From Snodgrassella alvi (GTDB lineage: Bacteria > Pseudomonadota > Gammaproteobacteria > Burkholderiales > Neisseriaceae): 64,000 nt of DNA. This document shows positions 48,458-64,000 of the stretch, piece after piece. A program made the position numbers and the translations under genes. Where the stretch lies: positions 186,001 to 250,000 of the forward strand of contig NZ_MEIK01000034.1 in NCBI RefSeq assembly GCF_002777855.1, in the 5' to 3' direction. Positions within the stretch are counted from its first letter, which is position 1. Every line of letters begins with the position of its first letter. Under the pieces are notes generated by a model that did not search any database, was not told where the DNA came from, and worked only from the letters and a program-made list of their open reading frames with translations.

Positions 48458-48481
48458 CATAATCACATCACAGCTTATAAT
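48454..48481 (+). promoter_or_regulatory. Sigma70 promoter of promoter-terminator unit 1
   Basis: A perfect -35 TTGACA (48454-48459), a 16-base spacer and a perfect -10 TATAAT (48476-48481) form one of the strongest-looking promoters in the window. The -35 overlaps the stop codon (48455-48457) of the preceding gene. Confidence 0.8.
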
Positions 48482-48487
48482 AAATTA

Positions 48488-48551
48488 TAAATTACAGGTA
48501 TGCTTCACCTTAAACAGCTGTTTGATAAAGTTCCCGCAAGGGAGCTTTTTT
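48488..48551 (+). ncRNA. Short RNA, unit 1 of a duplicated promoter-terminator pair
   Basis: The predicted transcript of about 64 nt starts near 48488. It carries the core CAGGTATGCTTCACCTTAAA (continuing to CAGCTG at 48520), in which AGGT pairs with ACCT. It ends at the hairpin AGTTCCC/GGGAGCT with loop GCAA and six T residues (48529-48551). The same layout with nearly the same core occurs at 52985-53048. It could be a trans-acting small RNA or the terminated leader of a late transcript. No likely peptide is encoded; a 20-codon frame from the internal ATG is not kept in copy 2. Confidence 0.6.
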
Positions 48552-48579
48552 GCATCTGGTGATTACGAAACCGGTTAAA

Positions 48580-49092: not shown

Positions 49093-49683
49093 TTATATAA
49101 AACCGGCTTTGTATACAATTTGTCCAATAATTTCTATCTGATTTAATCCAACAGTTTCATCTGGGTATTCATGATTATTATAACTTTTCATTCTTACCCG
49201 CTCATCAGGTAAGTTTTGCAGTATCCTGATTCTGAGAAGACTACCCTGATTAAATGCATAAATCTTACCGTCTACAGGTATTTTTTTGGAAATATCCACA
49301 ACAAGCTTGTCACCATCTTTTAACAAATTATGCATCGAATCACCACTCATGGTAATACTAACCAGATTGTCTATCTGCAAATTACTTAGCTTGATATCCT
49401 CTCGGTACAGTTGAAGCTGAGAAGTTTCTGAATGAGTGTTTTGAGACGGTAGAGGGGGAATCGGAATAAACGCATCATCATTAAACAGGCCATCCGATAT
49501 GCTTTCACTGGGCTGAAAATTAAGGATTTGCATAATCCGGTTAACCGTTTCCAGTCTGGGCGCAACTTTACCCAGTTCGTAACGGGAAATTAGAGAAGGC
49601 GTAATGCCAGTTTTAAAGGCAAGCTCTTTTTGAGAAAGCCCAGCAGCCAATCTGGCAGCTTTAAGTTGAATGGCAAATTTCAT
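49093..49683 (-). CDS. Phage-type XRE/S24 repressor (second copy)
   Basis: This is a predicted repressor of 196 aa. The N-terminal helix-turn-helix is textbook: LKAARLAAGLSQKELAFKTG then TPSLISRYELGKVAPR, residues 7-42. The S24-like domain has the Ser in GDSMHNLL near residue 114. By alignment to LexA (DGKIYAFNQGSLLRIRIL), the catalytic Lys is replaced by Arg, so it probably cannot self-cleave, and no Ala-Gly site is visible. It is divergent from an antirepressor gene, which suggests inactivation by protein contact. Its likely operators are in 49736-49809. Confidence 0.85.
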   Translation of the reverse strand: MKFAIQLKAARLAAGLSQKELAFKTGITPSLISRYELGKVAPRLETVNRIMQILNFQPSESISDGLFNDDAFIPIPPLPSQNTHSETSQLQLYREDIKLSNLQIDNLVSITMSGDSMHNLLKDGDKLVVDISKKIPVDGKIYAFNQGSLLRIRILQNLPDERVRMKSYNNHEYPDETVGLNQIEIIGQIVYKAGFI

Positions 49684-49735: not shown

Positions 49736-49809
49736 AATGGTTAAAAATAGCCATTAAATGCTTGTAATTATCTTTTGTAGATTTTAATATAGCCATAAAT
49801 GGCTATATT
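49736..49809. promoter_or_regulatory. Promoter with overlapping palindromic operator(s) between repressor 2 and antirepressor
   Basis: A rightward promoter TTGTAA (49762-49767), 17-base spacer, TAATAT (49785-49790) has its -10 inside a perfect 24-bp palindrome, AATATAGCCAT-AA-ATGGCTATATT (49786-49809). A second, looser site AATGG-N10-CCATT lies at 49736-49755, sharing the TAGCCAT half. This is the expected layout for a phage repressor controlling a divergent early promoter. Confidence 0.7.
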
Positions 49810-49978
49810 TAATAACCGTAAGAGGTATATTACCTGAATTTATATTGAGTCAAAACTGTCATTAAGTTTAACCCAAAGTAGTTTTAAGTTATTTAAAATT
49901 AAATTAACAATAAACTAATACAAGGTGAAAATAAAAAAAATTAAATATATTTAATTAGTATAGCAACTTAAAAGGAAA

Positions 49979-50047: not shown

Positions 50048-50947
50048 ATGAATAATAGTATCACATTTGTTTCTTTTAATGGGAGTAGTCTGGCTACAGT
50101 TAAAATCAAGAATACAGTTTACGTGTGCATGAAATCTGTAGTCAGCGGAATCGGTCTAGACTGGTCGACCCAGCATCGAAAACTCAGAGGCTGTTATCAA
50201 AAGTATGGTTGTGGATTTTTATCCATCCCAATTAAAAATGGCACCAAAAAAATATTAGCAGTTCCATTAAAAAAGCTAAGTAACTGGCTGCAGAGCATCA
50301 ATCCCAAAAAAGTGAAAGATAGCCTTAAAGACACCGTAGTAATTTATCAGAACGAGTGTGCAGAAGCTATACAGGCTTACTGGCGTAAACCTCGTACGTT
50401 AAAAAAGCCGTGCTGTCCACAACCAGTAGACAAAAATAAATCCGGCTTACAACCTGACCAGATTGCTGTGATAAAAGCACTGCATCGGCAACTTGTATTA
50501 TCCGTTGCCAAAGAAAAACAGGCAGAACTGGCCATGACATTATGGCAGGCAGTACAAACCCGCTATGGTGTCAGCTACGAGCATGTACCCGCATCCAAAT
50601 TTAGTGAAGTGCTGTGTCTACTCAGCCGCGTAGCTGTAAAAAAGGTTAGTCTTGGTAATGCACAACCAGATAACAATGGTTTTACTGACATAATGGTACC
50701 ACCTGCTCAACTAGATAATCTATATGAATCATTTGTATGCTCACAGAATATGCGCCTTATGTTTGAGCATTTACTGCCAGCATTGCATATTTTTGGCAGC
50801 AAATACGAAAATCAGGTCCATAAATATGCCTATGAAATAGAGCATGTCTTTAATAACTGCTATAAGGCTTTTCTACCCTTATTTGACAAAATGCCCGAAT
50901 CAGAAATTAAAGAATCTGCGCGCAAGCATCTGGCTAAGCTGATGTAA
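50048..50947 (+). CDS. Phage antirepressor-like protein with N-terminal P22_AR_N domain
   Basis: This 299-aa protein probably binds and disables a phage repressor. The N-terminal part (about 1-118) has the P22_AR_N pattern: ITFVSFNGSSLATVKIKNTVYV, then WSTQHRKLRG near 39 and LKKLSNWLQSINPKKV near 75, AEAIQAYWR near 107. The middle and C-terminal parts (about 135-299) are helical and not recognised. AAGGAG lies seven bases before the ATG. It is divergent from repressor 2 and followed by a strong terminator, so it is probably expressed alone from the 49762 promoter. Confidence 0.78.
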   Translation: MNNSITFVSFNGSSLATVKIKNTVYVCMKSVVSGIGLDWSTQHRKLRGCYQKYGCGFLSIPIKNGTKKILAVPLKKLSNWLQSINPKKVKDSLKDTVVIYQNECAEAIQAYWRKPRTLKKPCCPQPVDKNKSGLQPDQIAVIKALHRQLVLSVAKEKQAELAMTLWQAVQTRYGVSYEHVPASKFSEVLCLLSRVAVKKVSLGNAQPDNNGFTDIMVPPAQLDNLYESFVCSQNMRLMFEHLLPALHIFGSKYENQVHKYAYEIEHVFNNCYKAFLPLFDKMPESEIKESARKHLAKLM

Positions 50948-51143
50948 TTTTCCCAAGAGTTTGGTACTAAGCGAAACTTACACACTGCTTTGCACAGAAT
51001 ATGATAATAAACAGTTTTCATTTGATGAAACTGGTAGAAAATCTTGAATTAATGACTAAATCACAGAAGGAGAAATATTGCAAAAACAAAACAAATATTT
51101 ATACGATAAATTAAATATGAAAATTTTATTATTAATGGGTACA
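50948..51143. other. Short region between antirepressor and lysis genes
   Basis: A good AAGGAG (51067-51072) precedes a TTG at 51078 that opens a frame of about 37 codons running through the terminator. It has no family signal and a rare start, so it may be only a leader peptide. Nothing else is seen. Confidence 0.3.
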
Positions 51144-51169
51144 AAAACCGGCATTTGCCGGTTTTTTTG
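51144..51169 (+). terminator. Intrinsic terminator upstream of the first holin candidate
   Basis: The stem AACCGGC/GCCGGTT with loop ATTT (51147-51164) is followed by seven T residues. It ends only 27 bases before the next gene, leaving little space for a promoter there. Confidence 0.9.
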
Positions 51170-51195: not shown

Positions 51196-51684
51196 ATGAA
51201 AAATGTGGAAATGGTATTACAGTTACTTTATTCACTGCTGGATTTAAGATTTTTGCCGGATAAATTACAAAAATGGTTGTTTCATACAGGTACACGCGTT
51301 ATTACCGTAACCAGCGCACTGATAATGATCGGTTTTGCCGGCATATTTCTGCTGGGCGGTAGCGAGGTTTTTAATCTCAAACTGTATAAAGGCTTTTTGT
51401 TATTACATCCGTTGACTCTTTCGGTACTGTTGATTGGTATGGCCGTATTGCAATTGCTTGTAACCATATTTAAATCTAATCGTTGCAACGTGCTTTGTGG
51501 TTATTTACTGATTTTATCCGCACTGATATGGGCAGTCATATCGGCTACGTTTTGGGCTTCATATCCACCACTGACCACCGGAATGACAACTTATCCGGTA
51601 TTAGCTGTTGTGTGTGCGCTAGCCGGACGTAATCAGATCAACTACACAAAACGGGTTGAAGATTTGAAACACAAAGGACGATAA
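51196..51684 (+). CDS. Small membrane protein in the lysis cassette
   Basis: This 162-aa protein is not recognised. It has four hydrophobic segments near residues 34-55, 66-92, 98-118 and 128-145, with a basic C-terminal tail (NYTKRVEDLKHKGR). Position before a second small membrane protein and a cell-wall endopeptidase suggests a holin or holin-associated role. It ends 3 bases before the next gene, so they are co-transcribed. A terminator lies immediately upstream. Confidence 0.55.
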   Translation: MKNVEMVLQLLYSLLDLRFLPDKLQKWLFHTGTRVITVTSALIMIGFAGIFLLGGSEVFNLKLYKGFLLLHPLTLSVLLIGMAVLQLLVTIFKSNRCNVLCGYLLILSALIWAVISATFWASYPPLTTGMTTYPVLAVVCALAGRNQINYTKRVEDLKHKGR

Positions 51685-51687: not shown

Positions 51688-52026
51688 ATGGAGTTAATAA
51701 AAAATGCTTTTTCCGTCTGTATTTTATTTGCGCTGATAGGCGGGCTAGCTGGTTCTTTATTGGTCACAGATTATAAACGCTACGGTTGGTTTATGACCAT
51801 ACTGTTTGTATTACTGGGAATGATTTTTTCAGCAGCAGTGACCGATTACTTTTTTCCGCCAAACCGCCCATGGCTTTTTGCTGGTGTAGGAGTATTTGCA
51901 GGTATGTCTACAACATCCTTTCTTGATGCCTTCAAAGCCGCCGCGCCAGGACTGGCAAAGCGCATTATTGATATTGTAACTAGAAAAGCAGAACAATTTG
52001 TTGGTCACGATGATACAACAAAATAA
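51688..52026 (+). CDS. Putative phage holin (three membrane segments)
   Basis: This 112-aa protein has three hydrophobic segments near residues 7-26 (FSVCILFALIGGLAGSLLV), 34-52 and 62-82 and a charged C-terminus. Size and layout resemble three-helix phage holins of the LydA-like type. Such proteins open the inner membrane to release the endolysin. It lies 3 bases after another membrane protein gene and 53 bases before the endopeptidase gene, with a terminator in between. Confidence 0.6.
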   Translation: MELIKNAFSVCILFALIGGLAGSLLVTDYKRYGWFMTILFVLLGMIFSAAVTDYFFPPNRPWLFAGVGVFAGMSTTSFLDAFKAAAPGLAKRIIDIVTRKAEQFVGHDDTTK

Positions 52027-52079: not shown

Positions 52080-52511
52080 ATGTATAAATTAAGTAATCGC
52101 TCATTGCAGCGACTATATGGAGTAGATAACGGTCTAGTTAGAGTGGTAAAAAGGGCAATAGAACTGACCACTCAAGATTTTATGGTAACAGAAGGCCTAC
52201 GCACACGAGAACAATGTTGCATTAATTACGGTAAAGGCCGCACCGAACAGCAATGTATACTAAAAGGTGTGCCAGCAAAATATGCACAGCCAGCCATAAG
52301 TAAAGTTACCTGGTTAAATAATCCGTTTGCCAGTAAACATGTTACTGGTAAGGCAATTGATCTGGTACCGTATCCAGTAGACTGGAACGATTTGCATAAA
52401 TTTCGCACCATTGCTTTGGCAATGAAGCAAGCAGCAGCAGAACTAAATGTAAAAATTGTCTGGGGTGGGGATTGGAAAACTAGCAAAGACTATCCTCATT
52501 TTGAGGTATAA
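52080..52511 (+). CDS. M15 family peptidoglycan endopeptidase (phage endolysin type)
   Basis: This cell-wall peptidase of 143 aa is the size of phage L-alanyl-D-glutamate endolysins. The zinc-binding M15 motifs are clear: SKHVTGKAIDLVPY near residues 94-107 (SxHxxGxAxD) and YPHFEV at the C-terminus with the third ligand His. VTEGLRTREQCCINYGKG near 38 matches the RTxxxQ substrate region. It has no signal peptide, so it depends on a holin for release. It is part of the lysis cassette with the two membrane proteins upstream. No spanin gene is visible. Confidence 0.87.
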   Translation: MYKLSNRSLQRLYGVDNGLVRVVKRAIELTTQDFMVTEGLRTREQCCINYGKGRTEQQCILKGVPAKYAQPAISKVTWLNNPFASKHVTGKAIDLVPYPVDWNDLHKFRTIALAMKQAAAELNVKIVWGGDWKTSKDYPHFEV

Positions 52512-52950: not shown

Positions 52951-52978
52951 TTGACTTATACATAATAAATGCTATAAT
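52951..52978 (+). promoter_or_regulatory. Sigma70 promoter of promoter-terminator unit 2
   Basis: TTGACT (52951-52956), a 16-base spacer and TATAAT (52973-52978): the same spacing as unit 1. Confidence 0.8.
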
Positions 52979-52984
52979 AAATTC

Positions 52985-53048
52985 AAATCACAGGTATGCT
53001 TTACCTTAAACAGCTGAATAGATAAGTTCCCTAAATGGGAGCTTTTTT
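52985..53048 (+). ncRNA. Short RNA, unit 2 of the duplicated promoter-terminator pair
   Basis: The predicted transcript of about 64 nt carries the core CAGGTATGCTTTACCTTAAA followed by CAGCTG, one base different from unit 1, with AGGTA pairing to TACCT. It ends at AGTTCCC/GGGAGCT (loop TAAAT) and six T residues. The linker between core and terminator differs from unit 1, so selection seems to act on core, stem and promoter. It points towards the 3' end of the tmRNA gene about 105 bases away. Confidence 0.6.
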
Positions 53049-53152: not shown

Positions 53153-53513
53153 TGGTGGAGGCGGGGGGAATCGAACCCCCGTCCGAAAGTCCTCTACAGA
53201 GCGATCTACATACTTAGTCTTGCCAACTTCGAATCTTATTCACAAACCGCCGACAGACAGGCTGTTTGTAAACCAGTTGCCATAAATCTCGTTTAATGCC
53301 AGACAACACGACATTAAACCAGCCAATGTAAATGTCGTTGCGGTGAGTTGCCTCACACGGCCCATTGGCGAACCGTTGCAACGTTTAGCCTTAAGCGGCT
53401 AAAGCGTAAGTTTCGTCGTTTGCGACTATATAATTTCAGGGTTTAACGGGAATCTGAGACCCCGGTATGCACGCATCTGCTTTGCAACCCCCGTCGAAAC
53501 CAAGGTCGCCCCC
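53153..53513 (-). ncRNA. ssrA: Transfer-messenger RNA (tmRNA)
   Basis: This 361-nt RNA rescues stalled ribosomes and tags the nascent protein. The tRNA-like ends are clear: 5' GGGGGCG pairs with CGCCTCC before an encoded ACCA, and the T-arm is GGGGGTTCGATTCCCCC. The tag frame follows a GTC and reads ANDETYALAA then TAA (about 53391-53422), the tag known from Neisseria. It lies next to phage-derived genes, and ssrA is a common integration site, but I found no repeat of its 3' end in the window. Confidence 0.97.
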
Positions 53514-53727
53514 AGATAGTTTGTCAATTATACGTTTATTTGAGATATATGCAAACTTATTCTGAATTGCTATATACTAACTAAGTTGGCTGCTGGATTA
53601 AAATATTAAATTATCTTTATTAATTTGCATATATACAATTAGAGCAGAATGTAAATCTGTTGATGCAATATCGTTGCCAAACGTATTGATTTATAATCTA
53701 CAGGTTTAATTTGAAATCTTGGTTAAT

Positions 53728-54225
53728 ATGTACGATGTCAATACTGATGATGTACGTCATTTTTTTGCAGATATCTGGCAGAAGCGTCAGCAGCCTCAGT
53801 TGCTTAATGCTCTACAGCAGAAGGCATTGAGAATTATTGCGGCGCATAGTGAATATGCGCCTTATTTAGAAAATGTCGAACAATACCTTAACCGTACATG
53901 GCGGCCAGAAGAAGGGGAGACTAACCCTTTTTTGCATTTGTCATTACATTTGTCAGTACAGGAGCAGGTTGCGATTGATCAGCCATTTGGTATTGCTGCC
54001 ATCCATCAGCAGTTATGTAAAAAATATGCAGGTGACTGGGTCAAAGCCGAGCACGATATGATAGAAGCATTGGCGGAAACCCTCTGGCTGGCACAGCGTT
54101 ATGGGCAGGGGCTGGATGTGAATGCTTATATGACGCGTCTGCGTAGTTTGGTTGGGCTCGGACAGGAAGACAACCCGCGTCTGAATCCGCATGAAATCGA
54201 AACAGCTGCCGTAAAAAAAGATTGA
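53728..54225 (+). CDS. DUF1841 family protein
   Basis: This is a conserved betaproteobacterial protein of unknown function, about 165 aa. It starts MYDVNTDDVRHFFADIW and has the family core NPFLHLSLHLSVQEQVAIDQP near residues 69-89, HDMIEALAETLWLAQR near 108. It has no signal peptide or membrane helix. The start is ATG 53728; a TTG three codons earlier is possible. It is a housekeeping gene between tmRNA and the DUF441 gene. Confidence 0.85.
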   Translation: MYDVNTDDVRHFFADIWQKRQQPQLLNALQQKALRIIAAHSEYAPYLENVEQYLNRTWRPEEGETNPFLHLSLHLSVQEQVAIDQPFGIAAIHQQLCKKYAGDWVKAEHDMIEALAETLWLAQRYGQGLDVNAYMTRLRSLVGLGQEDNPRLNPHEIETAAVKKD

Positions 54226-54341
54226 ATTTGCTCTAGTATAAATTATAGTTTATTGTTTAACCATTTGTACCGATTTACTTTATTAGATTAAATGTGGTAC
54301 ATAATATTTTGGAATCTGTAAGCTTTAATTAAGGGATGGAT

Positions 54342-54791
54342 ATGTCTTTTTGGGCAAGTAATGCAAATGCTTTGTTGCTACTGTTGTTTGTGGCGTTGGG
54401 TATTTTCGGACATAATCCTTCAGTAACGATTTCTGCATTGATTATCCTACTGGTGCAGCAAACGCCGTTATTGAAATATGCACCGCTATTAGAAAAATAT
54501 GGGCTGCAGCTTGGAATTATGCTGCTGATGATCGGTGTATTGGCACCGCTGATTACAGGTAAGGTGCAGCCTGCGCAGATTGCGGCCTTGGCCAGTAGCT
54601 GGAAAACCATTGCTGCTGTAGTAGTAGGCATTGTCGTTGCGTGGCTGGGTGGCCGTGGGGTACAACTAATGCAAATGAATCCCACCATTGTGACAGGTTT
54701 GATGATTGGTACGATTATCGGAGTGGCTTTCTTACGTGGAGTGCCGGTGGGACCTTTGATTGCAGCTGGATTACTGTCGTTAATTCTATAG
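54342..54791 (+). CDS. DUF441 (YeaL-like) inner-membrane protein
   Basis: This membrane protein of unknown function has about 149 aa and four to five hydrophobic segments. Family marks are ALGIFGHNPSVTISALIILL near residues 19-38, VVAWLGGRGVQLM near 103 and the C-terminal FLRGVPVGPLIAAGLLSLIL, as in E. coli YeaL. AAGGG at 54331-54335 fits ATG 54342 (six-base spacing) better than ATG 54336. It stands upstream of tRNA-Ser. Confidence 0.88.
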   Translation: MSFWASNANALLLLLFVALGIFGHNPSVTISALIILLVQQTPLLKYAPLLEKYGLQLGIMLLMIGVLAPLITGKVQPAQIAALASSWKTIAAVVVGIVVAWLGGRGVQLMQMNPTIVTGLMIGTIIGVAFLRGVPVGPLIAAGLLSLIL

Positions 54792-54857
54792 GTATATTGC
54801 CTGAAGTTCTTGCCAGAATGAGGTCCGCTCGTTATAATGCGCCCACTTCCATTTCTT

Positions 54858-54948
54858 GGAGAGGTGGATGAGTGGTTGAAGTCGCACGCCTGGAAAGCGT
54901 GTATACGTGAATAACGTATCGAGGGTTCGAATCCCTTCCTCTCCGCCA
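54858..54948 (+). tRNA. tRNA-Ser (anticodon GGA)
   Basis: This is a 91-nt class II tRNA with acceptor stem GGAGAGG/CCTCTCC, anticodon arm GCACGCCTGGAAAGCGTGT (GGA, serine TCC/TCT), a long variable arm (ATACGTGAATAACGTAT) and an encoded CCA. A terminator follows. Confidence 0.96.
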
Positions 54949-54958
54949 GTTTCTATAT

Positions 54959-55613: not shown

Positions 55614-56207
55614 GTGCTTAATCAAATCCAAAATGCAATTATTGATCGATTACATCAGGGGTTGGGATCATTAGTCACAGATATAGAAGTTTTTTTTGGT
55701 GGGCTTGAAAATAGAGATGCGTTCACCAACAAAGAAAAAAAAACATCTGTGTTATTAACTCTTAATCAAGCACATATAAAAATAAAGAGTTCTGAACGCC
55801 AACGTTTCGAATTAATAGCTAATTTTTATGTAGTTTGTGTAAATAATGAGATTAATGATTCAGAATCTTTGCAGAATACCAATATCAATGACTTAATTTA
55901 TGCCGTATTACGTCTGCTGAGTGGACAGAGATTAAATGAACACTTAAATAGTTTAGGTTTGCAGCCGAAATCGGTTCGTCCAGTTTTTTTTAATCCTCCT
56001 GATGCCAATAATAAAGATTTGAATATTTATGCCATTGAATTTGAGGCAGGTTTTGATATCTATGGGCTGGAAAGTGATCAATATCCCGAATATACCAACG
56101 ATGTAAGTAATCCTGACTATTTATTTAGTAAATGTAATGGTAGTCATTCCGAACCACATGCTCCATTTACTTCACTGACGGTGAATATAGAAGAAATAGA
56201 AAATTAA
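55614..56207 (+). CDS. Mu gp37-like tail protein (DUF1834)
   Basis: This 197-aa protein matches the Mu-like gp37 group, which sits just ahead of the sheath gene in Mu-type tails; its role is probably tail completion. Recognisable parts are IDRLHQGLGSLVTDIEVFFG near residues 10-29 and RQRFELIANFYVVCVN near 63. It is the first gene of the tail operon; the capsid genes that precede it in phage Mu are absent. The start is GTG 55614; AGGAG is 13 bases upstream, which is long, so an ATT at 55611 or weak initiation is possible. Confidence 0.7.
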   Translation: MLNQIQNAIIDRLHQGLGSLVTDIEVFFGGLENRDAFTNKEKKTSVLLTLNQAHIKIKSSERQRFELIANFYVVCVNNEINDSESLQNTNINDLIYAVLRLLSGQRLNEHLNSLGLQPKSVRPVFFNPPDANNKDLNIYAIEFEAGFDIYGLESDQYPEYTNDVSNPDYLFSKCNGSHSEPHAPFTSLTVNIEEIEN

Positions 56208-56247
56208 GTTTGGCAGGATTAAGTTCTAACTATTCATGAGAAAGAAG

Positions 56248-56427
56248 ATGAAGGTTAAAGCAGCAGATGGTTTGCGCGTACCAAAAGAAAAACGCGTTAA
56301 TTCTTATATAACAACTCAATTGGTTAACGTACCGGACACTCTCTACTACCGTCGTTTGGTGGCTGATGGCGATCTGATAATGATAACTGAAAATTTCGAA
56401 GAAAATAAAACAGGAGTGAATGAATGA
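56248..56427 (+). CDS. DUF2635 small tail protein (Mu gp38-like)
   Basis: This is a small protein of about 59 aa: MKVKAADGLRVPKEKR followed by PDTLYYRRLVADGDL. This is the DUF2635 pattern found between gp37 and the sheath gene in Mu-like phages; the function is unknown. An in-frame ATG at 56236 would add four residues (MRKK). It overlaps the sheath gene by 4 bases. Confidence 0.75.
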   Translation: MKVKAADGLRVPKEKRVNSYITTQLVNVPDTLYYRRLVADGDLIMITENFEENKTGVNE

Positions 56428-57857
56428 TAGAAAATATCCAGTTTGATACTGTGCGAAATGATATTCGTGTACCAGGACGGTATATTGAATTCAATACCCG
56501 GACAGCAGTAAGAGGATTGCCCGCTAATCCGCAGAAAATGCTGCTGATTGCACCTATGCTACCAACAGGCAGACAGCCGGCATTAGCACCCGTACAATTA
56601 TTTAGTGACGCCGATGCTGCTAATCTCTTTGGTGAGGGGTCATGGGCTCATTATTGTGTCAAACAGGCATTTACTAATAATCCATATTTGGATTTAACTA
56701 TTATTGGTGTAAATGATGCTGAACAAAGTATTGCTGCTAAAGCCAGCATAGCCATTACGATTGTAGATCCAGGTGCTAACTCAGGTATCCTTACGATTAA
56801 TATCGGCGGCACGGAATGTCAGCTGACAGTCAATAATGGTGATACTAACGCAGAAGTTTATAACCGGCTGGCAAATATAATTAACCATGTAAACACATTA
56901 GCTACAGCAGAGGTTGTAAGCGATAAAATTCAGTTAACCGCTAAAAATAAAGGTTCGATTGGTAATGAAATTACTTTGTCGGCATCATTTAATACAGACA
57001 CATCCAGCGCCAGCAGTGTAGTGCTGGATATCAAACCATTTGAAGGTGGACAGCTTAATCCCGATATCAGTGCTGCTCTGCAGAGAGTAGCCGGTAAGCA
57101 TTATCAGATTATTTGTAATGCATTTACTGATAGTCTGAATGCTAAAAAATTATCGGATCATATAGATCTGGTATCAAATGCAATTGAAAAGCGCGGCTGT
57201 ATAGGTGTAATGGGCTGGCGAGGTACCCTAAGTACAGGAACAACTTTTGCTAATAACATCAACAGTGGACGTATTACTGTAGCATGGTATAAAAATGCTG
57301 TAGAAGGTAATGCCATTATTGCTGCTGGCTATGCGGCTGTAATTGCCAGTGAAACTGATCCCGCCCGCCCATTAAATACTCTTGAAATAAAAGGTCTAAG
57401 TATTACGTCTGATGCCAGCTGGCCTTTATTTGCTGAGTTTAATAGTGCTTTATACAATGGTCTTTCACCGTTGCATATTGTATCTAACCGCGTACAGATT
57501 ATGCGAGCAGTCTCAACATATGTAAAAAATGCAACTGGTACTGATGATCCGGCATTGTTGGATATTACTACTATCCGTACTCTTGATTATGTTCGAGATG
57601 CGATTAATCAACGCATAGCTTTACGTTTTCCACGAGAAAAACTGTCTGAACGTACACCTTTAAAAGTCCGTTCCGAAATTCTGGATGTTTTAAATCAATG
57701 TGAAAGCGCAGAAATTCTGGAACAGGTAATGGAAAATAAAGAAAAATTGATTGTACAGCGTAATCCCAGCGATCCAAATCGTTTGGATGCAGTGATACCG
57801 GCTGATGTAGTTAATGGATTGCATGTATTGGCTGCACGTGTGGATCTGTATTTATAA
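56424..57857 (+). CDS. Contractile tail sheath protein (Mu gpL-like)
   Basis: This is the contracting outer tube of a myovirus-type tail, 477 aa. The N-terminus (IRVPGRYIEFNTRTAVRGLP near residues 14-33) and the C-terminal block (VNGLHVLAARVDLYL) are typical of Mu gpL. In between are an inserted immunoglobulin-like domain (about 105-215) and the AGYAAVIASETDPARPLNTL region near 307, the conserved sheath core. It is coupled to DUF2635 by a 4-base overlap. A hairpin lies between it and the tube gene. Confidence 0.9.
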   Translation: MIENIQFDTVRNDIRVPGRYIEFNTRTAVRGLPANPQKMLLIAPMLPTGRQPALAPVQLFSDADAANLFGEGSWAHYCVKQAFTNNPYLDLTIIGVNDAEQSIAAKASIAITIVDPGANSGILTINIGGTECQLTVNNGDTNAEVYNRLANIINHVNTLATAEVVSDKIQLTAKNKGSIGNEITLSASFNTDTSSASSVVLDIKPFEGGQLNPDISAALQRVAGKHYQIICNAFTDSLNAKKLSDHIDLVSNAIEKRGCIGVMGWRGTLSTGTTFANNINSGRITVAWYKNAVEGNAIIAAGYAAVIASETDPARPLNTLEIKGLSITSDASWPLFAEFNSALYNGLSPLHIVSNRVQIMRAVSTYVKNATGTDDPALLDITTIRTLDYVRDAINQRIALRFPREKLSERTPLKVRSEILDVLNQCESAEILEQVMENKEKLIVQRNPSDPNRLDAVIPADVVNGLHVLAARVDLYL

Positions 57858-57868
57858 ATTAATTATTA

Positions 57869-57895
57869 AAGGTGTTAATTTTTCATTAACACCTT
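57869..57895 (+). promoter_or_regulatory. Intercistronic stem-loop between sheath and tube genes
   Basis: A perfect 11-bp stem AAGGTGTTAAT/ATTAACACCTT with a 5-nt loop lies in the 59-base gap. No T-run follows, so it may stabilise mRNA or tune the sheath to tube ratio. Confidence 0.6.
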
Positions 57896-57916
57896 ATTAA
57901 ATATAAAGGAAATTAT

Positions 57917-58303
57917 ATGGCAAATAAAACAGGTGCTAAATATGCAGGTGCGGTAATTATGGAAGTAAACGGCCGTGAAGTGGAAATTATTAGCTTTAAG
58001 CCGGAAGTAACTACCGGACGCAAGGTGGTAAAAACGATGAATAAATCCGGTAAGGTTCGTGGTTATGCGGATGGTGTGACTGAATATACCATGAGTGTTA
58101 GTGCGGCTATTCCTTTGGATGAAAGTGGCATTGATTGGGACAATATTACTAACGCCAAAATTACTATTTATCCGCGTAATGCTGATGAAGCTCGCATTAG
58201 TTATATTGGCTGTACCAGTACAAAATGCTCGGAAGAATACAGTGTAGAAAATGAAGCACGTCGTGATATTGAAATGTTTGCATTGGATAAAGTGATTGAA
58301 TAA
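57917..58303 (+). CDS. Contractile tail tube protein (Mu gpM-like)
   Basis: This is the inner rigid tail tube protein, 128 aa, about the Mu gpM size. Marks are YAGAVIMEVNGREVEIISFKP near the start, KSGKVRGYADGVTEYTMSVS near 43-62 and a beta-rich fold expected for tube subunits. AAGGA lies seven bases before the ATG. Its stop overlaps the start of the chaperone gene by one base (TAATG). Confidence 0.88.
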   Translation: MANKTGAKYAGAVIMEVNGREVEIISFKPEVTTGRKVVKTMNKSGKVRGYADGVTEYTMSVSAAIPLDESGIDWDNITNAKITIYPRNADEARISYIGCTSTKCSEEYSVENEARRDIEMFALDKVIE

Positions 58304-58680
58304 TGTTAAAAGAGACTGGAAAACTGGTTTATGGTCTGGAATACAATCAGCAGATGTATTTTGATTATACTGTTAAGCCATTGACTTTGGCCGATGAACT
58401 TAAGGCACTGGAATTATTGGAGGATACTGGTTTAATCACTGATGTTCCAGATGCAGAAAAAGCGATTATTACTACTCTGGCTTATTGGGCGCAACAGTTG
58501 CAAGTGCCAGGTATAGAACCAGAAAATCTAAGTGTTGAATTTCTTTTTAATAATCTGGCATCTGAAGATTATCAGTCAATTTTAACAAGTATGGAATCAC
58601 TTCGGTCAAAATCGATTGCCGCTGGCCGGTCAGACCCAGCGGCATCCGAAAAAGCCGAGAGCAACGAAGCTTTGAAGTAG
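58303..58680 (+). CDS. Tail assembly chaperone (Mu gp41-like), short form
   Basis: This 125-aa protein is in the position of the tail assembly chaperone: between tube and tape measure. Such proteins coat the tape measure during assembly, like lambda gpG. The N-terminus VKPLTLADELKALELLED near residues 23-40 resembles Mu gp41. A downstream frame at -1 continues the protein (see the next entry), like gpG/gpGT. The start overlaps the tube stop. Confidence 0.75.
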   Translation: MLKETGKLVYGLEYNQQMYFDYTVKPLTLADELKALELLEDTGLITDVPDAEKAIITTLAYWAQQLQVPGIEPENLSVEFLFNNLASEDYQSILTSMESLRSKSIAAGRSDPAASEKAESNEALK

Positions 58681-58898
58681 CGCATAAAAATTATAGACAG
58701 GCATGTATATTACTGGCCAAATCATTGATTACTCCTGAAATGGTAAGCAGGATGTGTCATTCAGAAGTATCAGTGTGGATTGAGACGGTGCTGGAAAGTA
58801 TGGGCATCAAAAATGATGATGATAATGTAATTATTTCTTTACGTCAGAGAAAACCAAAACCTTTTCAGCCGGTTAAAGAAAGTTTGGCCGCTAATTAG
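58644..58898 (+). CDS. -1 frame extension of the tail chaperone (candidate programmed frameshift)
   Basis: In the -1 frame relative to the chaperone, the sequence is open through the end of the short form and on to TAG 58896-58898. The downstream part reads HKNYRQACILLAKSLITPE, then WIETVLESMG and KPFQPVKESLAAN, protein-like and with no own start near the junction (first ATG 58740). The run CGAAAAAG (58647-58654) is a possible slip site, though not a perfect XXXYYYZ heptamer. The product would be a gpGT-like fusion of about 198 residues, as in lambda and Mu. Confidence 0.6.
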   Translation: MRKSREQRSFEVAHKNYRQACILLAKSLITPEMVSRMCHSEVSVWIETVLESMGIKNDDDNVIISLRQRKPKPFQPVKESLAAN

Positions 58899-58908
58899 CC
58901 TGATTAAA

Positions 58909-58942
58909 TGCATAATCCCTGTCTTGTGGCAGGGATTATGCA
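58909..58942 (+). promoter_or_regulatory. Intercistronic stem-loop before the tape measure gene
   Basis: A perfect 13-bp stem TGCATAATCCCTG/CAGGGATTATGCA with an 8-nt loop lies 10 bases after the chaperone extension. No T-run follows. Confidence 0.65.
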
Positions 58943-59027
58943 TTGATACTGCTGAAGTCTATTCATTTCTTTCAATTCATTTAATCATTTGGAATTAATA
59001 TAACTATAATTAAGAGAGAGTATTGAT

Positions 59028-61559
59028 ATGTCTTCCAATCAGGATTCGTTGGCAAAACAGCAGGCTTCTATCGTGAAAATGACAGAAGAAGTAAAAAAGC
59101 TTGAACAGCAGATAAAACGAACGGCAGCAGTTGCTATTCGGGAAAGTGAAAAGGCGGGTAAATCACAAATTCGCATTATTCAGCAAATTCAGAGAGAACA
59201 GCAACGAACAGCTGAAGTACGTTTACGCAAGGAGTTGCGTGCTGAGCAGCAGATTCAGCGTGAAATCATCAAAAGTGGGAATGCTTATAAAAATTTTGCG
59301 GCCACAGCCAGTGCTGCGCAAAAACAGATTCAGAATGCTAGTAAGGCATCACGCAATAGTATTCGCGAATTAAATAAAGAGTTAGAAAAAAGCTCTAAAA
59401 TTCAGAAAAATTCGGGGGTTTCAAAAAATTCCGGATGGAATACAGCTAAGTCGGCAGGTAGTGCTATTATTAAAGGTGGCAAAGCTGTATATGATGCTGT
59501 TAGTCCATCAATTGATGATGAAAAAAAATTACGTTCGGGTGTGTTACAAACTGCTGCTAAAGCTTATGTATCCGATAAAAGTAAATCAACTGAATGGATT
59601 AAAACTGAGGGTGTAAAAGAAATTCAGTCTTTGGTGAAAGGACTGGTTGCCTCAAATGGTGGGACTTCACAAGCTGCTCTAGATTTGATCAATGATATGT
59701 TGCAACAAAACATGACTCTTGATCAAGTTAAAGCCACTATTCCTTATGCCCATCGTAGTATGATAAATTCATCCACTGAAGTGGGTAAATATGATCATGA
59801 AAATACGGCTAAACTGTTTAAATCTTTTGCAGATTATGGTTTAAAAAATCAAGATTATCATCAGGTTTCTGATCATATTATTGATTCAACTAAGCAGGGT
59901 AAGTTTTCGATAGCTGAGCTTAGTGGTGAGCTACCAGAATTACTATCATCTGGAAAAAAAGCTGGGTTAACAGATATTCGTGGTATTGATTATTTGATTT
60001 CTAGTTTACAAGCTACTTCTACCCATTCTGATTCGAATGAGGATGCTGGTAAGAGTGTTAAGGCTTTGCTTGGGGCTCTGGCTGATCCTAGTCTTACAGA
60101 GAAACTGAGTCGTGTTAAAGATCCTAATTCACCAAACAGACATTTAGACTGGAATAAAATAAGAGAAGAGGGTGGCAAGCAAGGCCTAAATGATGTTCAA
60201 TCTTTGCTTAAGGTTTGTACTGAAATCTTAGCTAAAGATAAAAATTATCAGAATTTAAAGCAAAAAGCCGACTCTGGAGATTTGTATTCCAGTCAGCTGA
60301 TGCAGGCTAGACAAGATAAGCTTCTATCATTTATACCAGAAGAGGCGAAAGATGCTGTTCATGCTAATTTAAGTAACCAGAATCTGTTACAACCGCAAAC
60401 AAAATTATTTACGCAATCTGGTGAAAGTTCATCAGATAGACATGCAGCTGTTTTAGCTGCTAATCCAGAATTTCAGCAAGAAAAAAATCATGCGCTGACA
60501 ATATTGGGTAGAAGTGAGGCTGTAGAACCACTTGTTGGTTTTCAAACTAAATTAACTGAATTGTCAGCGGAGTTTCCGGTACTGACTTTAGCGGTAACTG
60601 CTTTAGCTGCAGCAGCAGGCAGTGCTGCTACTGCATTGCAAACGTTGGGTTCACTATCCGGATCTGGACAGAAAAATGATATCGAGATTGATGGTGGTGA
60701 CGATTTTGATAAAAAAAGAAATAAAAACAGTAAAAACAAAGGTAGTAAAACGCCATCATCTTCTAAGACAACTTTGAAATCCAGAAAATTTCCGGCAAAA
60801 ATGGCTGGTAAAGTGATGGGTCGGGGTAATTTAGCTTTATCTGCTATTGGTGGTGTAGCTAATGGAATTGCAATTGCAAATGATGACAGTTTAACTGCTG
60901 AACAGAAAAAGACCGCTCAAATAAAAAATGCATCCTCAACAACGGGAAGTATGGCTGGTGCATGGGCAGGTGGAGAGATTGGTGCGGCAATCGGCACATT
61001 TATATTTCCCGGTGTAGGTACTGTTCTAGGTGGGCTAGTTGGTGGTTTGATTGGTGGCATCGGCGGCAGTATGTTGGGCGATAAAATAGGCGATAAGGTT
61101 ACCCAAACCAACGAAAATGAAAATATACATACAGCAGCAAATACATTCAGTGGACAGAGGATGTCTTCGGATTGGCATGATGCTTATGGCGTCAATCCTG
61201 CTTTGTCTAGCCAATTCAAATTGACTAGTGATAGGGAGCAGATGCTGAATGGCAATTATATGATGACATCCACAGCGATGATGATGTCGTATAAAAATAT
61301 TCCTGCCAATATGCATGCTGATGAAAATCAGTTGCCTGCTGGGCAATCTGTGTTGGTACAGCAGAATGAGCAATTTCAAAATGCTTTCCAATCTATTGTA
61401 CTGGAACTGGGTATACGTTTAGACAAAATAGCTACCATACTTTCGAGTCAGCAACAGGTTATACAGAATAATGTAACTTTGACGCTGGATGGGAGAGTAA
61501 TCAGTAATATAGTTTCACGTAATCAAGTGGAAATGTATAACCGAGGGGGAGCACAATAA
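59028..61559 (+). CDS. Tail tape measure protein (Mu gp42-like)
   Basis: This long helical protein sets tail length, 843 aa. The N-terminal 130 residues are a basic coiled coil rich in Gln, Glu, Lys (VKKLEQQIKRTAAVAIRESE). Hydrophobic stretches near 515-540 and a Gly-rich glycine-zipper near residues 642-690 (GEIGAAIGTFIFPGVGTVLG) suit membrane contact on injection. At about 0.15 nm per residue it would measure a tail of roughly 125 nm as an upper estimate. Its stop overlaps the next ATG by one base. Confidence 0.88.
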   Translation: MSSNQDSLAKQQASIVKMTEEVKKLEQQIKRTAAVAIRESEKAGKSQIRIIQQIQREQQRTAEVRLRKELRAEQQIQREIIKSGNAYKNFAATASAAQKQIQNASKASRNSIRELNKELEKSSKIQKNSGVSKNSGWNTAKSAGSAIIKGGKAVYDAVSPSIDDEKKLRSGVLQTAAKAYVSDKSKSTEWIKTEGVKEIQSLVKGLVASNGGTSQAALDLINDMLQQNMTLDQVKATIPYAHRSMINSSTEVGKYDHENTAKLFKSFADYGLKNQDYHQVSDHIIDSTKQGKFSIAELSGELPELLSSGKKAGLTDIRGIDYLISSLQATSTHSDSNEDAGKSVKALLGALADPSLTEKLSRVKDPNSPNRHLDWNKIREEGGKQGLNDVQSLLKVCTEILAKDKNYQNLKQKADSGDLYSSQLMQARQDKLLSFIPEEAKDAVHANLSNQNLLQPQTKLFTQSGESSSDRHAAVLAANPEFQQEKNHALTILGRSEAVEPLVGFQTKLTELSAEFPVLTLAVTALAAAAGSAATALQTLGSLSGSGQKNDIEIDGGDDFDKKRNKNSKNKGSKTPSSSKTTLKSRKFPAKMAGKVMGRGNLALSAIGGVANGIAIANDDSLTAEQKKTAQIKNASSTTGSMAGAWAGGEIGAAIGTFIFPGVGTVLGGLVGGLIGGIGGSMLGDKIGDKVTQTNENENIHTAANTFSGQRMSSDWHDAYGVNPALSSQFKLTSDREQMLNGNYMMTSTAMMMSYKNIPANMHADENQLPAGQSVLVQQNEQFQNAFQSIVLELGIRLDKIATILSSQQQVIQNNVTLTLDGRVISNIVSRNQVEMYNRGGAQ

Positions 61560-62887
61560 TGACTATGTGGAAAAATAATCTGCAAAAAGCCAGTTATAAA
61601 AATATTGCTTTTGATGTCATTTCTATTAATGATAAAAATGAAAAATCGCTGGTAAGACATGGCCGACCTTTCGCCAATGGCTCTGATATTGAAGACTTGG
61701 GTGCACAAGGGCGGCAATGTCAGATTGCGGCTGTTTACTTTGGTTCAAGTTTTGATTCGCAGTTGATCAAGCTTCTTACCGTGCTTGAAGAACCTAGTGC
61801 TGGTACGCTGGTTCATCCGGTTTTGGGTTTGTTGCCCAATATGATTGCTGCCAGCTGGTCTTTTCGTACTGAGGCTGAAGCAGTTAATTATGTTGCACTG
61901 GATATAACGTTTTTTGAAGCCAAAGAATCAGCACCATTATTTTTATTTGAAAATCAATGGCTGGTCAAATTAGAACAGATTCAGAATTCTCTTGATCAGT
62001 TTACGCAGCAGTTATTGGCATATAGCAACGTATTGTTAACGGTACGTGAGGGGGGGGCCTCTATTTGGGGGAGTAGTAATGGTGTGTTTGCTGCTTTATG
62101 TGGGGTAGCTGGGAGTGTGAGACGTTTTTTTGATCTTGATCCTTTGCTCTATCAGACTTCTAAAAATTATTCTTCAATTACTTTTAGTCAGGATGTCAGG
62201 GGACTAATTGATACTATGTCCAGTATGGTGTGTTCTGGTTTGAATAACGAAAGTAATTTCGGTACAGGTAGTTTAAGCAGCAGACAAGCTTTTGATTTGA
62301 TAGGTAATCGTGTAGATATTTTGAACCAATTGCCAGAAAATATTCTTCATAATCAGAATGCGCAGGAATCTCAGGAGGCAGCTATTAATCATGTACAAAG
62401 AATTGCGGAAATTCAGATGAAACCGGTTGCTCAGATTCTACAATTTCTGAGTACTGTGTATTTGGTTCAGATTACAGTTAATATCATTGAAATAAATAGT
62501 GATCATGTTACAGCTAATGAGCTGCAACTTATTAATAATAATTTACGGCTACGTATACAAGGTTTAATTAATAGTTTACGTGGAACTTATGATTATGCTG
62601 AAAATATAAAAAGTATTAATGCTGCTGCTTTTTATACGCAGACGACAATTTTAATACAGATGCTGGCCAATATAGCTGCTCAGTTTAATGATTATATTTT
62701 GTCTGTCATTAATCAAAAGCCACCTATGCGTACACGTAAAGCCGAAATAAGTGGAACGATTCATCAATTGGCTTATTTACTTTACCAAGATTTAAACCGG
62801 GCTAGTGAGTTGATGCGTCTCAATCCTCATTTGTGCCACCCTTCTTTCATTAAGCGTAATGACTGGATTAATTATTATGTTAAATGA
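61559..62887 (+). CDS. Mu gpN-like DNA circularisation/tail protein
   Basis: This 442-aa protein is in the Mu gene N (gp43) position. The N-terminus has the DNA_circ_N pattern: WKNNLQKASYKNIAFDVIS near residues 4-22, VRHGRPFANGSDIEDLGAQG near 32 and FEAKESAPLFLFE near 118. In Mu-like phages the product is a baseplate hub-associated tail protein, despite the family name. It overlaps the next gene by 11 bases. Confidence 0.82.
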   Translation: MTMWKNNLQKASYKNIAFDVISINDKNEKSLVRHGRPFANGSDIEDLGAQGRQCQIAAVYFGSSFDSQLIKLLTVLEEPSAGTLVHPVLGLLPNMIAASWSFRTEAEAVNYVALDITFFEAKESAPLFLFENQWLVKLEQIQNSLDQFTQQLLAYSNVLLTVREGGASIWGSSNGVFAALCGVAGSVRRFFDLDPLLYQTSKNYSSITFSQDVRGLIDTMSSMVCSGLNNESNFGTGSLSSRQAFDLIGNRVDILNQLPENILHNQNAQESQEAAINHVQRIAEIQMKPVAQILQFLSTVYLVQITVNIIEINSDHVTANELQLINNNLRLRIQGLINSLRGTYDYAENIKSINAAAFYTQTTILIQMLANIAAQFNDYILSVINQKPPMRTRKAEISGTIHQLAYLLYQDLNRASELMRLNPHLCHPSFIKRNDWINYYVK

Positions 62888-64000
62888 AAGTGATTTGGTA
62901 CCTTATCCTTATGGTAATGAAGTGGTGGTGCGGGTTGGCGGTAAAGAACATAAAGATTGGCTTAGTTATGATATTGACAGTGACTTTTTGATACCGGCAG
63001 ATGCGTTCAGTTTTGTTACTAATGTGTCACAAAATCAGGCTTTATTAGCGGATTATAGTTCTTTGCAATGTGAGGTGTTGATTAATCAGCAGCTGGTGAT
63101 GACAGGTATTATTGGCCATCAGAATGAAGTGATAGATAAAAATAATCACAGTATCGCTTTTAATGGCCGCGACCTTGCCGGATTACTGGTTGATTGCAGT
63201 GTGGCACAAATTAATGTCAAAGGAATGAATGTCTTAAGTGCTGCACAAAAAATTGTCAAACCATGGCCGCAGATTAAAAATGTGGTTTTAAAAGCAGAAA
63301 AGAATCCGGTATTGGACAAGATTGACATAGAGCCGGGGGAAACGGCTTGGCAGGCGCTGAGCAAAATTGCCTATAAAGTTGGGTTGCATGTCTGGCTTGA
63401 ACCCGATGGTACGCTGGTAGTTGGAGGGGCCGATTATGCTAGCCAGCCTGTAGCTTCATTGTGTCATAGTAAAAATGACAATCGGCGTAATATTCAAAGT
63501 ATTGAAATTGAGTACAGTACGGAAAATCGCTATTCGGAAGTAACTTTTCTTGGACAAAGCCATACACGCTATGCCAACTCATCTAAGCATGATCTGAAAT
63601 GGGTATATAAAGATGAAACCATGACGTTATATAAACCTAAAACGGTTGTCATTGGTGATGCTGAAAATCTGGAACAGCTCAAAGTTCAGGCTAAGAAAAT
63701 GCTTTCTGACTGGCGCCTTGAAGGTTTTACCTTAACTGTTACTGTTGCTGATCATAAAACCCAAAATGGTGTTTTATGGAAACCCGGGCAAAGGGTGCAT
63801 GTTATCGATGAAGATCAACAGATAGATGCTATTTTTTTTATCATGGGACGTCGGTTTTCTCTTAGCCGCAGCGGAGGAACGATGACAGAACTTCGCTTAA
63901 AAGAAGATGGAATTTGGACTCCGGATGCTTATGTGAAAAAGTCTGCTGCTGCACGTTCGCGCAAAGGTAAACGTAAAGGGGTGACTAACCGGCAAGTTAA
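62877..64000 (+). CDS. Baseplate hub protein (Mu gpP-like), 3' truncated by window
   Basis: This is the start of a Mu gpP (gp44)/late-control D-like hub protein; 374 complete codons are visible and the frame is open to the window end. The start is ATG 62877 (MLNESDLVPYPYGNEVVVRV), inside the end of the gpN-like gene. Visible features are a hub-type repeat with FNGRDLAGLLVDCSV near residue 92, a LysM-like KPGQRVHVIDEDQQIDAIFF near 302 and a lysine/arginine-rich stretch at the end (ARSRKGKRKG). Confidence 0.85.
   Translation, partial: MLNESDLVPYPYGNEVVVRVGGKEHKDWLSYDIDSDFLIPADAFSFVTNVSQNQALLADYSSLQCEVLINQQLVMTGIIGHQNEVIDKNNHSIAFNGRDLAGLLVDCSVAQINVKGMNVLSAAQKIVKPWPQIKNVVLKAEKNPVLDKIDIEPGETAWQALSKIAYKVGLHVWLEPDGTLVVGGADYASQPVASLCHSKNDNRRNIQSIEIEYSTENRYSEVTFLGQSHTRYANSSKHDLKWVYKDETMTLYKPKTVVIGDAENLEQLKVQAKKMLSDWRLEGFTLTVTVADHKTQNGVLWKPGQRVHVIDEDQQIDAIFFIMGRRFSLSRSGGTMTELRLKEDGIWTPDAYVKKSAAARSRKGKRKGVTNRQV

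What the first reader, a model, noticed from the sequence alone, without database searches (positions are those of the whole stretch)
55614..64000. Headless Mu-like contractile tail module: possible tailocin
The sequence shows gp37-like, DUF2635, sheath, tube, chaperone, tape measure, gpN-like and gpP-like genes in exact Mu tail order. In Mu, terminase, portal, protease and capsid genes precede gp37. Here a tRNA-Ser, a DUF441 gene and a DUF1841 gene precede it, with 630 non-coding bases. No integrase, transposase or head gene appears anywhere in 64 kb. A regulatory and lysis region with repressors, antirepressor, holin candidates and endopeptidase lies within 10 kb upstream. Together this suggests a domesticated contractile particle used against rivals. 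That the pieces form one system is inference.
Basis: partly seen in the sequence, partly recalled or inferred. Interest (0 to 1): 0.8.

Follow-up and report, generated by a model that had tools for sequence, protein, structure and literature searches.

The report
Bee-gut symbiont's headless phage-tail weapon
A Snodgrassella bacterium, a gut symbiont of bees, carries a complete phage tail without a phage head at a fixed chromosomal spot together with its own lysis genes and a pair of matching genetic switches, so it is very probably a particle used to puncture rival bacteria rather than a dying virus.

Summary
Confirmed and extended. The window ends inside a complete Mu-type contractile tail module (gp37 to fibre chaperone, 55614 to 68558 in extended coordinates), followed by cellular genes, not head genes. 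The genus is Snodgrassella. The slot after tRNA-Ser(GGA) holds tail modules in 8 of 14 genus genomes: Mu-type only (2), P2-type only (1), both in tandem (5). Headed relatives exist elsewhere as prophages. A regulator/lysis cassette 3 kb upstream, beyond tmRNA, DUF1841, DUF441 and tRNA-Ser, has close orthologues in exactly those 8 genomes. Tail genes are intact, under purifying selection and about as diverged as flanking genes; fibre tips vary and match across the two tail types. New: a 100-base element (promoter, box GGTATGCTTNACCTTAAACAGCTG, terminator) occurs exactly twice per island genome, on the lysis side and the tail side. Copy A begins on the stop codon of orf142. An orf142 paralogue in a headed prophage lies between primase/helicase and terminase, and two predicted models both rank phage-21 antiterminator Q first in the PDB, with weak scores. 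Best reading: a tailocin whose lysis and tails are switched on together by a Q-like antiterminator. Particle formation, killing and antitermination are untested.

The parts
47035..47652 (-). S24a, HTH plus S24 peptidase regulator; also present at tail-less sites, so perhaps a host regulator
   Evidence: PF00717 1.6e-22; 60-62% relatives at the tail-less sites of G006, G010, G012
48029..48457 (+). orf142, proposed Q-like late antiterminator
   Evidence: orthologues at 79-100% in the 8 island genomes only; paralogue between primase/helicase and terminase in a headed prophage; both models rank Q21 first in the PDB, weak scores; no Pfam, NCBIfam or PHROG assignment
48454..48553 (+). Twin element, copy A: promoter TTGACA-16-TATAAT 48454-48481 overlapping the orf142 stop, box 48497-48520, intrinsic terminator 48528-48553
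49093..49683 (-). S24b, CI-like repressor
   Evidence: PF01381, PF00717; phrog_4 3.6e-30
49783..49812 (.). Palindrome with TATAGCCAT / ATGGCTATA arms between S24b and antirepressor, proposed operator
   Evidence: inverted repeat I4; full in G000, G005, G002, half-sites in others
50048..50947 (+). P22-type antirepressor
   Evidence: PF10547 1.5e-29, phrog_524
51143..51166 (+). Intrinsic terminator just before hol1
   Evidence: stem kept in 8 of 8 aligned loci
51196..51684 (+). hol1, holin candidate
   Evidence: phrog_16843, unknown function; orthologues 86-100% in the 8 island genomes only
51688..52026 (+). hol2, second lysis-region membrane protein candidate
   Evidence: phrog_17925, unknown function; same order in a headed prophage
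52080..52511 (+). Endolysin, M15-type endopeptidase
   Evidence: PF13539 3.6e-12; phrog_465 2.6e-49
52951..53044 (+). Twin element, copy B: promoter TTGACT-16-TATAAT 52951-52978, box 52993-53016, terminator 53024-53044, pointing to the tail genes
53153..54948 (.). Host genes between cassette and tail: tmRNA (-), DUF1841 (+), DUF441 (+), tRNA-Ser(GGA) (+)
   Evidence: also present at tail-less sites
55614..56207 (+). gp37-like tail gene
   Evidence: PF08873
56236..56427 (+). DUF2635 / gp38-like
   Evidence: PF10948 just under cut-off, phrog_208
56424..57857 (+). Tail sheath
   Evidence: PF04984, PF17482
57917..58303 (+). Tail tube
   Evidence: phrog_185
58303..58898 (+). Tail assembly chaperone (58303-58680) with overlapping -1-frame ORF to 58898, possible frameshift product
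   Evidence: phrog_508; overlapping open frame in 7 of 7 island copies
59028..61559 (+). Tape measure protein
   Evidence: phrog_794
61559..62887 (+). gpN-like
   Evidence: PF07157, phrog_184
62859..64000 (+). gpP-like baseplate hub (runs to 64016). Beyond the window, in extended coordinates: gp45 64059-64739, gp46 64817-65167, gpJ 65193-66245, gp48 66242-66808, fibre 66811-67905, fibre assembly 67890-68558, then host TetR from 68734

Best explanation
A domesticated, chromosomally fixed R-type tailocin island of Snodgrassella. Shown by sequence: a complete headless Mu-type contractile tail with fibre and fibre chaperone, kept together with a regulator/lysis cassette and two near-identical promoter-box-terminator elements. 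Inferred: in the resting cell S24b (perhaps with S24a) holds the regulator genes down, and RNA polymerase that starts at elements A and B stops at the terminator a few tens of bases on. When repression is lifted, by an unknown stress signal and probably through the antirepressor, Orf142 is made, joins RNA polymerase at A and B as phage Q proteins do, and makes it run through terminators. From A it reaches antirepressor, hol1, hol2 and endolysin; from B it crosses tmRNA, DUF1841, DUF441 and tRNA-Ser into the tail genes. Tails assemble, the cell lyses, and the released particles bind rivals by the variable fibre tip and pierce their envelope. In relatives a P2-type tail module lies before the Mu-type one, or alone, behind the same element B, and fibre tips have moved between the two tail types.
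For: Complete tail, no head. One slot in 8 of 14 genomes, in three states. Cassette orthologues in the same 8 genomes only. Purifying selection, divergence near that of flanks, one clade apart from headed relatives. Variable and cross-module fibre tips. Twin element: 16 exact matches, two in each of the 8 island genomes, none elsewhere at that stringency, reversed control none. No promoter of 10/12 or better between tRNA-Ser and the first tail gene in 7 of 7 loci. orf142: phage late-regulator position and box in the G005 prophage, promoter of 11/12 or better behind the gene in 12 of 29 loci against 0.9% of random windows, Q21 ranked first in two fold searches.
Against: No expression, particle or killing data. 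Foldseek E-values for Q21 are 0.26 and higher with TM below 0.5; no sequence-level match to Q. A second orf142 subgroup lacks the box: 14 of 29 viral loci and 4 of 11 genome loci counted. The short box alone is no more frequent in the window than chance. S24a also occurs at tail-less sites. G011 has one near copy of the box (1 mismatch) without the island. No LexA over the cut-off, so the usual SOS induction is doubtful. Position of B on the same contig as the tails is seen in 6 of 8 genomes; G002 and G003 break in between. Several fibre chaperones in relatives look shortened, split or missing.
Confidence: 0.72

Rival explanations
1. A tailocin as above but with ordinary control: orf142 is a DNA-binding activator or has another role, and the twin elements are promoter-terminator units that make small RNAs or act as attenuators without Orf142.
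For: Elements fold into a simple terminator leader; Q similarity is weak; pyocins use an activator, PrtN (PMC8609362, passages).
Against: The promoter-box unit follows orf142-type genes in other loci too; tails have no good promoter of their own; terminators stand before hol1 and inside the lysis genes.
Confidence: 0.2
2. A decaying Mu-like prophage that has lost its head and is neutral debris.
For: The tail is Mu-type and headed relatives live in the genus; some fibre chaperones in relatives are shortened or split; tail genes are somewhat less constrained than flanking genes.
Against: All structural genes open, omega 0.003-0.27 for the 12 genes before the fibre between G000 and G003, tube 99% identical at dS 1.26; loss of the same head part in all island copies while the tail stays whole.
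Confidence: 0.04
3. A complete Mu-like prophage or a helper-dependent phage that borrows heads from another prophage.
For: Headed prophages occur in other genus genomes, and one in G005 shares fibre, chaperone and lysis genes.
Against: No Mu portal or head family in the own genome; no packaging gene near; one fixed site without a duplicated tRNA end.
Confidence: 0.02
4. A contractile injector that delivers effectors into insect or bacterial cells.
For: Host-associated lifestyle; some headless contractile systems are injectors (recalled).
Against: Gene order is that of phage Mu with a fibre-chaperone pair; the Pfam scans show no AAA ATPase or effector-like gene between gp37 and the fibre chaperone; linked lysis cassette.
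Confidence: 0.02

Closest known systems
Mu-derived R-type tailocins of the Pseudomonas syringae/fluorescens group (recalled, no call)
   Same: Headless Mu-type contractile tail at a fixed chromosomal site with lysis genes
   Different: Other genus and site; here the lysis cassette is separated from the tail by tmRNA, DUF1841, DUF441 and tRNA-Ser, and twin promoter-box-terminator elements are present
Pseudomonas tailocin clusters between mutS and cinA with 1-4 particles of R- and F-type (PMC8319346, passages); R/F pyocin pair (recalled)
   Same: Several different tails in one island with shared lysis genes
   Different: Here the pair is P2-type plus Mu-type, both contractile, present singly or in tandem; tips match across types
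BceTMilo of Burkholderia cenocepacia (PMC5411513, passages)
   Same: Beta-proteobacterial headless contractile tail with lysis genes and CI-like repressor
   Different: Genes compared there with phage KL3; RecA-dependent induction shown there, not tested here
Enterocoliticin (PMC13030884, passages)
   Same: Tailocin locus with genes annotated as antitermination proteins Q
   Different: There annotation only in what I read; here one Q-like gene with two matched elements, by comparison of genomes
Phage Q antiterminators, phage lambda pR'-tR' and phage 21 Q
   Same: Gene followed at once by a strong promoter and a terminator; position before late genes in a prophage relative; fold rank. The lambda layout is recalled
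   Different: No sequence similarity found; two target elements instead of one
Haemophilus phage SuMu and Mannheimia phage 3927AP2
   Same: Closest named phage relatives of gpP, 55-56% identity
   Different: Phage records; the island has no head

Membership tests
R-type tailocin | Complete contractile tail module including baseplate, fibre and fibre chaperone | tested here: met
R-type tailocin | No head, packaging, replication or transposition genes in the locus | tested here: met
R-type tailocin | Dedicated lysis genes | tested here: met
   Endolysin by family; holins by position only; co-occurrence
R-type tailocin | Fixed site, inherited with the chromosome | tested here: met
   8 of 14 genomes; continuity across contigs not seen in all
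R-type tailocin | Variable receptor-binding tips | tested here: met
R-type tailocin | Inducible release of headless particles that kill related strains | not testable with these tools
   Needs a bench experiment
Mu-like phage | Transposase and head genes | tested here: not met
   present in the headed relative in G007 C3 (portal by family; the 628-aa first gene only labelled transposase by me from position)
Q-type antiterminator (orf142) | Sequence match to a known Q family | tested here: not met
Q-type antiterminator (orf142) | Q fold | tested here: inconclusive
   Q21 ranks first in both models but E 0.26 and 0.65, TM below 0.5
Q-type antiterminator (orf142) | Gene lies before late genes, with promoter and terminator behind it | tested here: met
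Q-type antiterminator (orf142) | Suppresses termination | not testable with these tools
   Needs in vitro or reporter transcription

The most novel reading that the evidence does not exclude
A core gut symbiont of bees runs a two-tail weapon (P2-type and Mu-type particles that share fibre tips) by processive antitermination: one Q-like protein of a so far unnamed family acts at two near-identical late promoters, one for lysis and one for tails, and the second drives transcription through host genes, antisense across tmRNA and through tRNA-Ser, which ties the weapon to this site.
Probability: 0.55. Interest if true: 0.72.

Novelty: new variant of a known kind. Interest (0 to 1): 0.62.

Why it matters
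In the papers listed by my searches, antagonism among Snodgrassella strains is treated through type VI secretion (listings and abstracts). A conserved tailocin with variable tips would be a second, contact-independent weapon that could shape strain composition in bees. It may at present be counted as prophage: 10 of 11 sheath loci found in IMG/VR are this island and one is a headed prophage; a survey reports S. alvi among the highest prophage counts of the bee gut core (PMC10259446, passages), but whether the island is among those was not checked. The twin element is a clean, testable case of a captured phage late switch used for two purposes, and tips that match across two tail architectures record receptor arms races. 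Knock-outs in S. alvi wkB2 are established (PMC11389375, passages).

Tried and rejected
Without gain: megablast of the tail module against phage records (no match); orf142 by tblastn against phage records (no match); Rfam scan of 46800-56000 (only tmRNA and tRNA reach their gathering scores; no family for the element); LexA-type boxes, pattern CTGT-8-ACAG, in eight cassette stretches (none); a duplicated tRNA-Ser end as attachment scar (none in the island loci); G000 contig C2 as source prophage (7 of 54 prophage ORFs match, hol1, hol2 and endolysin at about 99%). Considered and rejected: remnant, complete prophage, injector (see rivals). A figure of nine Q21 hits in my notebook was a miscount; it is ten of the first thirteen.

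Rows set aside: fibre and chaperone rows are told apart because copies may not correspond (the chaperone used for G002 is that of its P2-type module, since no such ORF was called in its Mu-type module); G002_C6 was read on the wrong strand and is not counted.
Full report
WHAT IS THERE. The window is G000:C34:186001-250000 of a 2.34-Mb genome in 42 contigs. Six relatives of its sheath found among named genome contigs all belong to Snodgrassella. From 55614 the order is gp37, DUF2635, sheath, tube, chaperone, tape measure, gpN, gpP. Past the window edge follow gp45, gp46, gpJ, gp48, a collar-domain fibre and a fibre assembly protein to extended coordinate 68558, then TetR, HlyD and ABC exporter genes. 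Portal_Mu and Mu gpT have no match in the own genome, and 229 proteins from five prophage stretches of the genus gave no hit before 46900 in the window.

ONE SLOT, THREE STATES. The sheath has a relative in 9 of 14 genus genomes; a second, different sheath found next to it has one in 8 of 14. Mapped loci give this order: nar genes, S24a, orf142, S24b, antirepressor, hol1, hol2, endolysin, tmRNA, DUF1841, DUF441, tRNA-Ser, tail module(s), and a 439-aa gene on the other strand. G000 and G005 (same species) hold the Mu-type module only. G001 holds a P2-type module only (typed on the G007 copy: sheath, FII tube, GpU, X, GPD hub, spike, gp25, J, I). G002, G003, G004, G007 and G008 hold both, P2-type first. 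Assemblies break between cassette parts and tails in G002, G003, G004 and G008, so full continuity is seen in G000, G005, G001 and G007; in G002 even tRNA-Ser and tails lie on different contigs. G006 and G010 show the slot without tails, G012's contig ends 349 bases after tRNA-Ser, G009 and G011 show no tail after DUF441, and in G013 neither sheath nor DUF441 was found. Headed relatives lie elsewhere: in G007 C3 a Mu-type portal gene about 6 kb before a related sheath, a broken one in G009 C8, and Portal_Mu matches near P2-type tails in G012 C27 and G009 C15.

CASSETTE AND TAIL GO TOGETHER. At the tail-less sites of G006, G010 and G012 orf142, S24b, antirepressor, hol1, hol2 and endolysin are missing too, although tmRNA, DUF1841, DUF441 and tRNA-Ser are there. 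Whole-genome searches find hol1 at 86-100% and orf142 at 79-100% identity in exactly the 8 island genomes; every other match is at most 59% and 45%. S24a is the exception: it is present at those sites at 60-62%.

AGE AND SELECTION. Between G000 and G003 the 12 genes before the fibre have dS 0.5-2.6 and omega 0.003-0.27; six flanking genes have dS 1.2-1.9 and omega 0.03-0.10. Synonymous change is near saturation, so this shows similar, not equal, age; constraint on the tail is somewhat weaker than on the flanks. A tree of seven concatenated tail proteins puts the seven Mu-type island copies in one clade (100/100) apart from the G007 prophage and from G009 and G011. The host-flank tree shares the pair G003+G004 and the group of G002, G003, G004, G008, but pairs G002 with G008 where the tail tree places G008 outside, and much of it is unresolved. 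The chaperone keeps an overlapping ORF in the -1 frame in 7 of 7 island copies, and in the G007 prophage; the P2-type counterpart shows no such overlap for the ORF pairs compared (4 of 4).

FIBRES. The fibre N-terminus follows module type; the tip varies. Over the last 200 alignment columns G002's P2-module tip is 90% identical to the second Mu-module tip of G008 but 54% to G008's P2-module tip, and G001's P2-module tip is 70% identical to G007's Mu-module tip. G008 has two Mu-module fibres, the first followed by a shortened chaperone; G003 has a chaperone fragment; no chaperone ORF was called behind G002's Mu-module fibre. Between G002 and G008 the fibre (G008's second copy) is 61% identical, the twelve genes before it 93-100%.

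THE TWIN ELEMENT. Straight behind orf142 lies TTGACA-16-TATAAT, its first hexamer overlapping the stop codon, then a conserved box and an intrinsic terminator. The unit recurs between endolysin and tmRNA. GGTATGCTTNACCTTAAACAGCTG with up to 3 mismatches has 16 exact matches in 14 whole genomes, two in each island genome; the only other match (1 mismatch) is in G011 C2; the reversed control has none. In IMG/VR ten stretches from nine contigs hold it exactly: nine stretches carry island genes, and the tenth, L112, belongs to a contig seen with both modules as L096. Copy A follows orf142 in 8 of 8; copy B is on the contig of the tails in 6 of 8. No copy lies between the two modules. No promoter of 10/12 or better is predicted between tRNA-Ser and the first tail gene (7 of 7 loci) or at the module junction (5 of 5); tRNA-Ser has its own promoter-like site and terminator. 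Terminators stand before hol1 and between hol2 and endolysin in 8 of 8 aligned loci and before the P2-type module in 5 of 5. The copy-A terminator pattern has one match in the window with none expected, but the short box alone is not significant there.

WHAT ORF142 IS. In a headed prophage of G005 a paralogue (42%) lies between a primase/helicase and terminase small and large, portal and major head genes; that phage has fibre, fibre chaperone, hol1, hol2 and endolysin relatives in this order at its end. Of 11 paralogues counted in genomes, 7 have AGGTATGCTT 42-54 bases after the stop, with a promoter-like stretch before it by eye, and 4 have another leader; only the G005 one was checked for head genes. 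Of 29 viral-contig loci, 15 have GGTATGCTT 42-58 bases after the stop and 12 a promoter of 11/12 or better, against 0.9% of 5800 random windows; many loci are near-identical and not independent, and 7 of the 29 are the island itself. AlphaFold2 models of the island protein (pLDDT 72) and of a paralogue (pLDDT 75), made from the same 25 sequences, both rank phage-21 Q first among 350,542 PDB chains: places 1-6 and ten of the first thirteen in one, places 1, 2, 4 and 11 in the other, E from 0.26 up, TM 0.37-0.48. The viral structure library gave only weak matches, the best of them E 0.22 to phage proteins named RNA polymerase alpha. There is no sequence match to Q. I take this as support, not proof.

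MECHANISM. Shown: parts, conservation, co-occurrence, twin elements. Inferred: repression by S24b at a palindrome beside the antirepressor (full in G000, G005, G002; half-sites in the others looked at), relief by the antirepressor, action of Orf142 at A and B, one long transcript from B through the host genes, assembly, lysis, killing. The own genome has no LexA over the family cut-off (best 53.5 against 110.95 bits), so the usual SOS route is doubtful. S24a keeps the Ser and Lys of the S24 dyad in 8 of 8; in S24b the position that I align by eye with the Lys reads Arg in 7 of 7.

LITERATURE. Searches for Snodgrassella with tailocin; prophage and bacteriocin; phage tail; RNA-seq and phage; contractile and tailocin with honey bee listed no paper whose title or shown abstract reports this locus; of the papers listed there I read passages only of PMC10259446, PMC9239279 and PMC11389375. 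Passages were also read of PMC13030884, PMC5411513, PMC8319346, PMC8609362 and PMC13411936. Q genes in a tailocin locus are known by annotation in enterocoliticin. Searches on tailocins or phage tail-like bacteriocins with antitermination, and with tandem lysis cassettes, showed no report of twin late elements in what I saw, in a library that lacks most subscription papers.

VERDICT. Tailocin: very likely. Q-like control: likely. A new variant of a known kind.

Noticed in passing
L019, L039-L040 (G011:C24:184832-186247 and flanks): A Mu-type tail 65-66% identical in the sheath lies at another site of a genome without any Portal_Mu match; perhaps a second, independent headless system.
   Followed up: partly
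L036:16723-19404 (G003), L073:10790-12531 (G006), also G004 and G010: Small runs of related genes of about 117-174 aa, several with a signal-like start and the motif SCPxxFSD, between tmRNA and DUF1841; up to five copies in G003. Function unknown.
   Followed up: no
L002:6734-13793 (window coordinates 68734-75793): TetR, HlyD and ABC exporter genes stand between tail and the 439-aa flank gene in G000 and G005 only.
   Followed up: no
L043-L044 (G007:C3:38001-78000), L041-L042 (G009:C8): Headed Mu-type prophages that are natural comparators of the island; the G009 one has a broken portal gene.
   Followed up: partly
L085-L086 (G005:C1:268001-308000): Headed prophage with relatives of orf142, fibre (59%), fibre chaperone (75%), hol1, hol2 and endolysin (79%) of the island: likely kin of the source of the switch and lysis genes.
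   Followed up: partly
G011:C2:259152-259175 (L118): A lone near copy of the twin-element box (1 mismatch); no island reference gene matches within the 14 kb fetched.
   Followed up: partly
L087-L089 (G000:C2): A 40.6-kb contig of the own genome has lysis genes about 99% identical to those of the G005 prophage but little else of it; not characterised.
   Followed up: partly
window 46809-46847: Perfect 18-base inverted repeat just after the narI gene.
   Followed up: no
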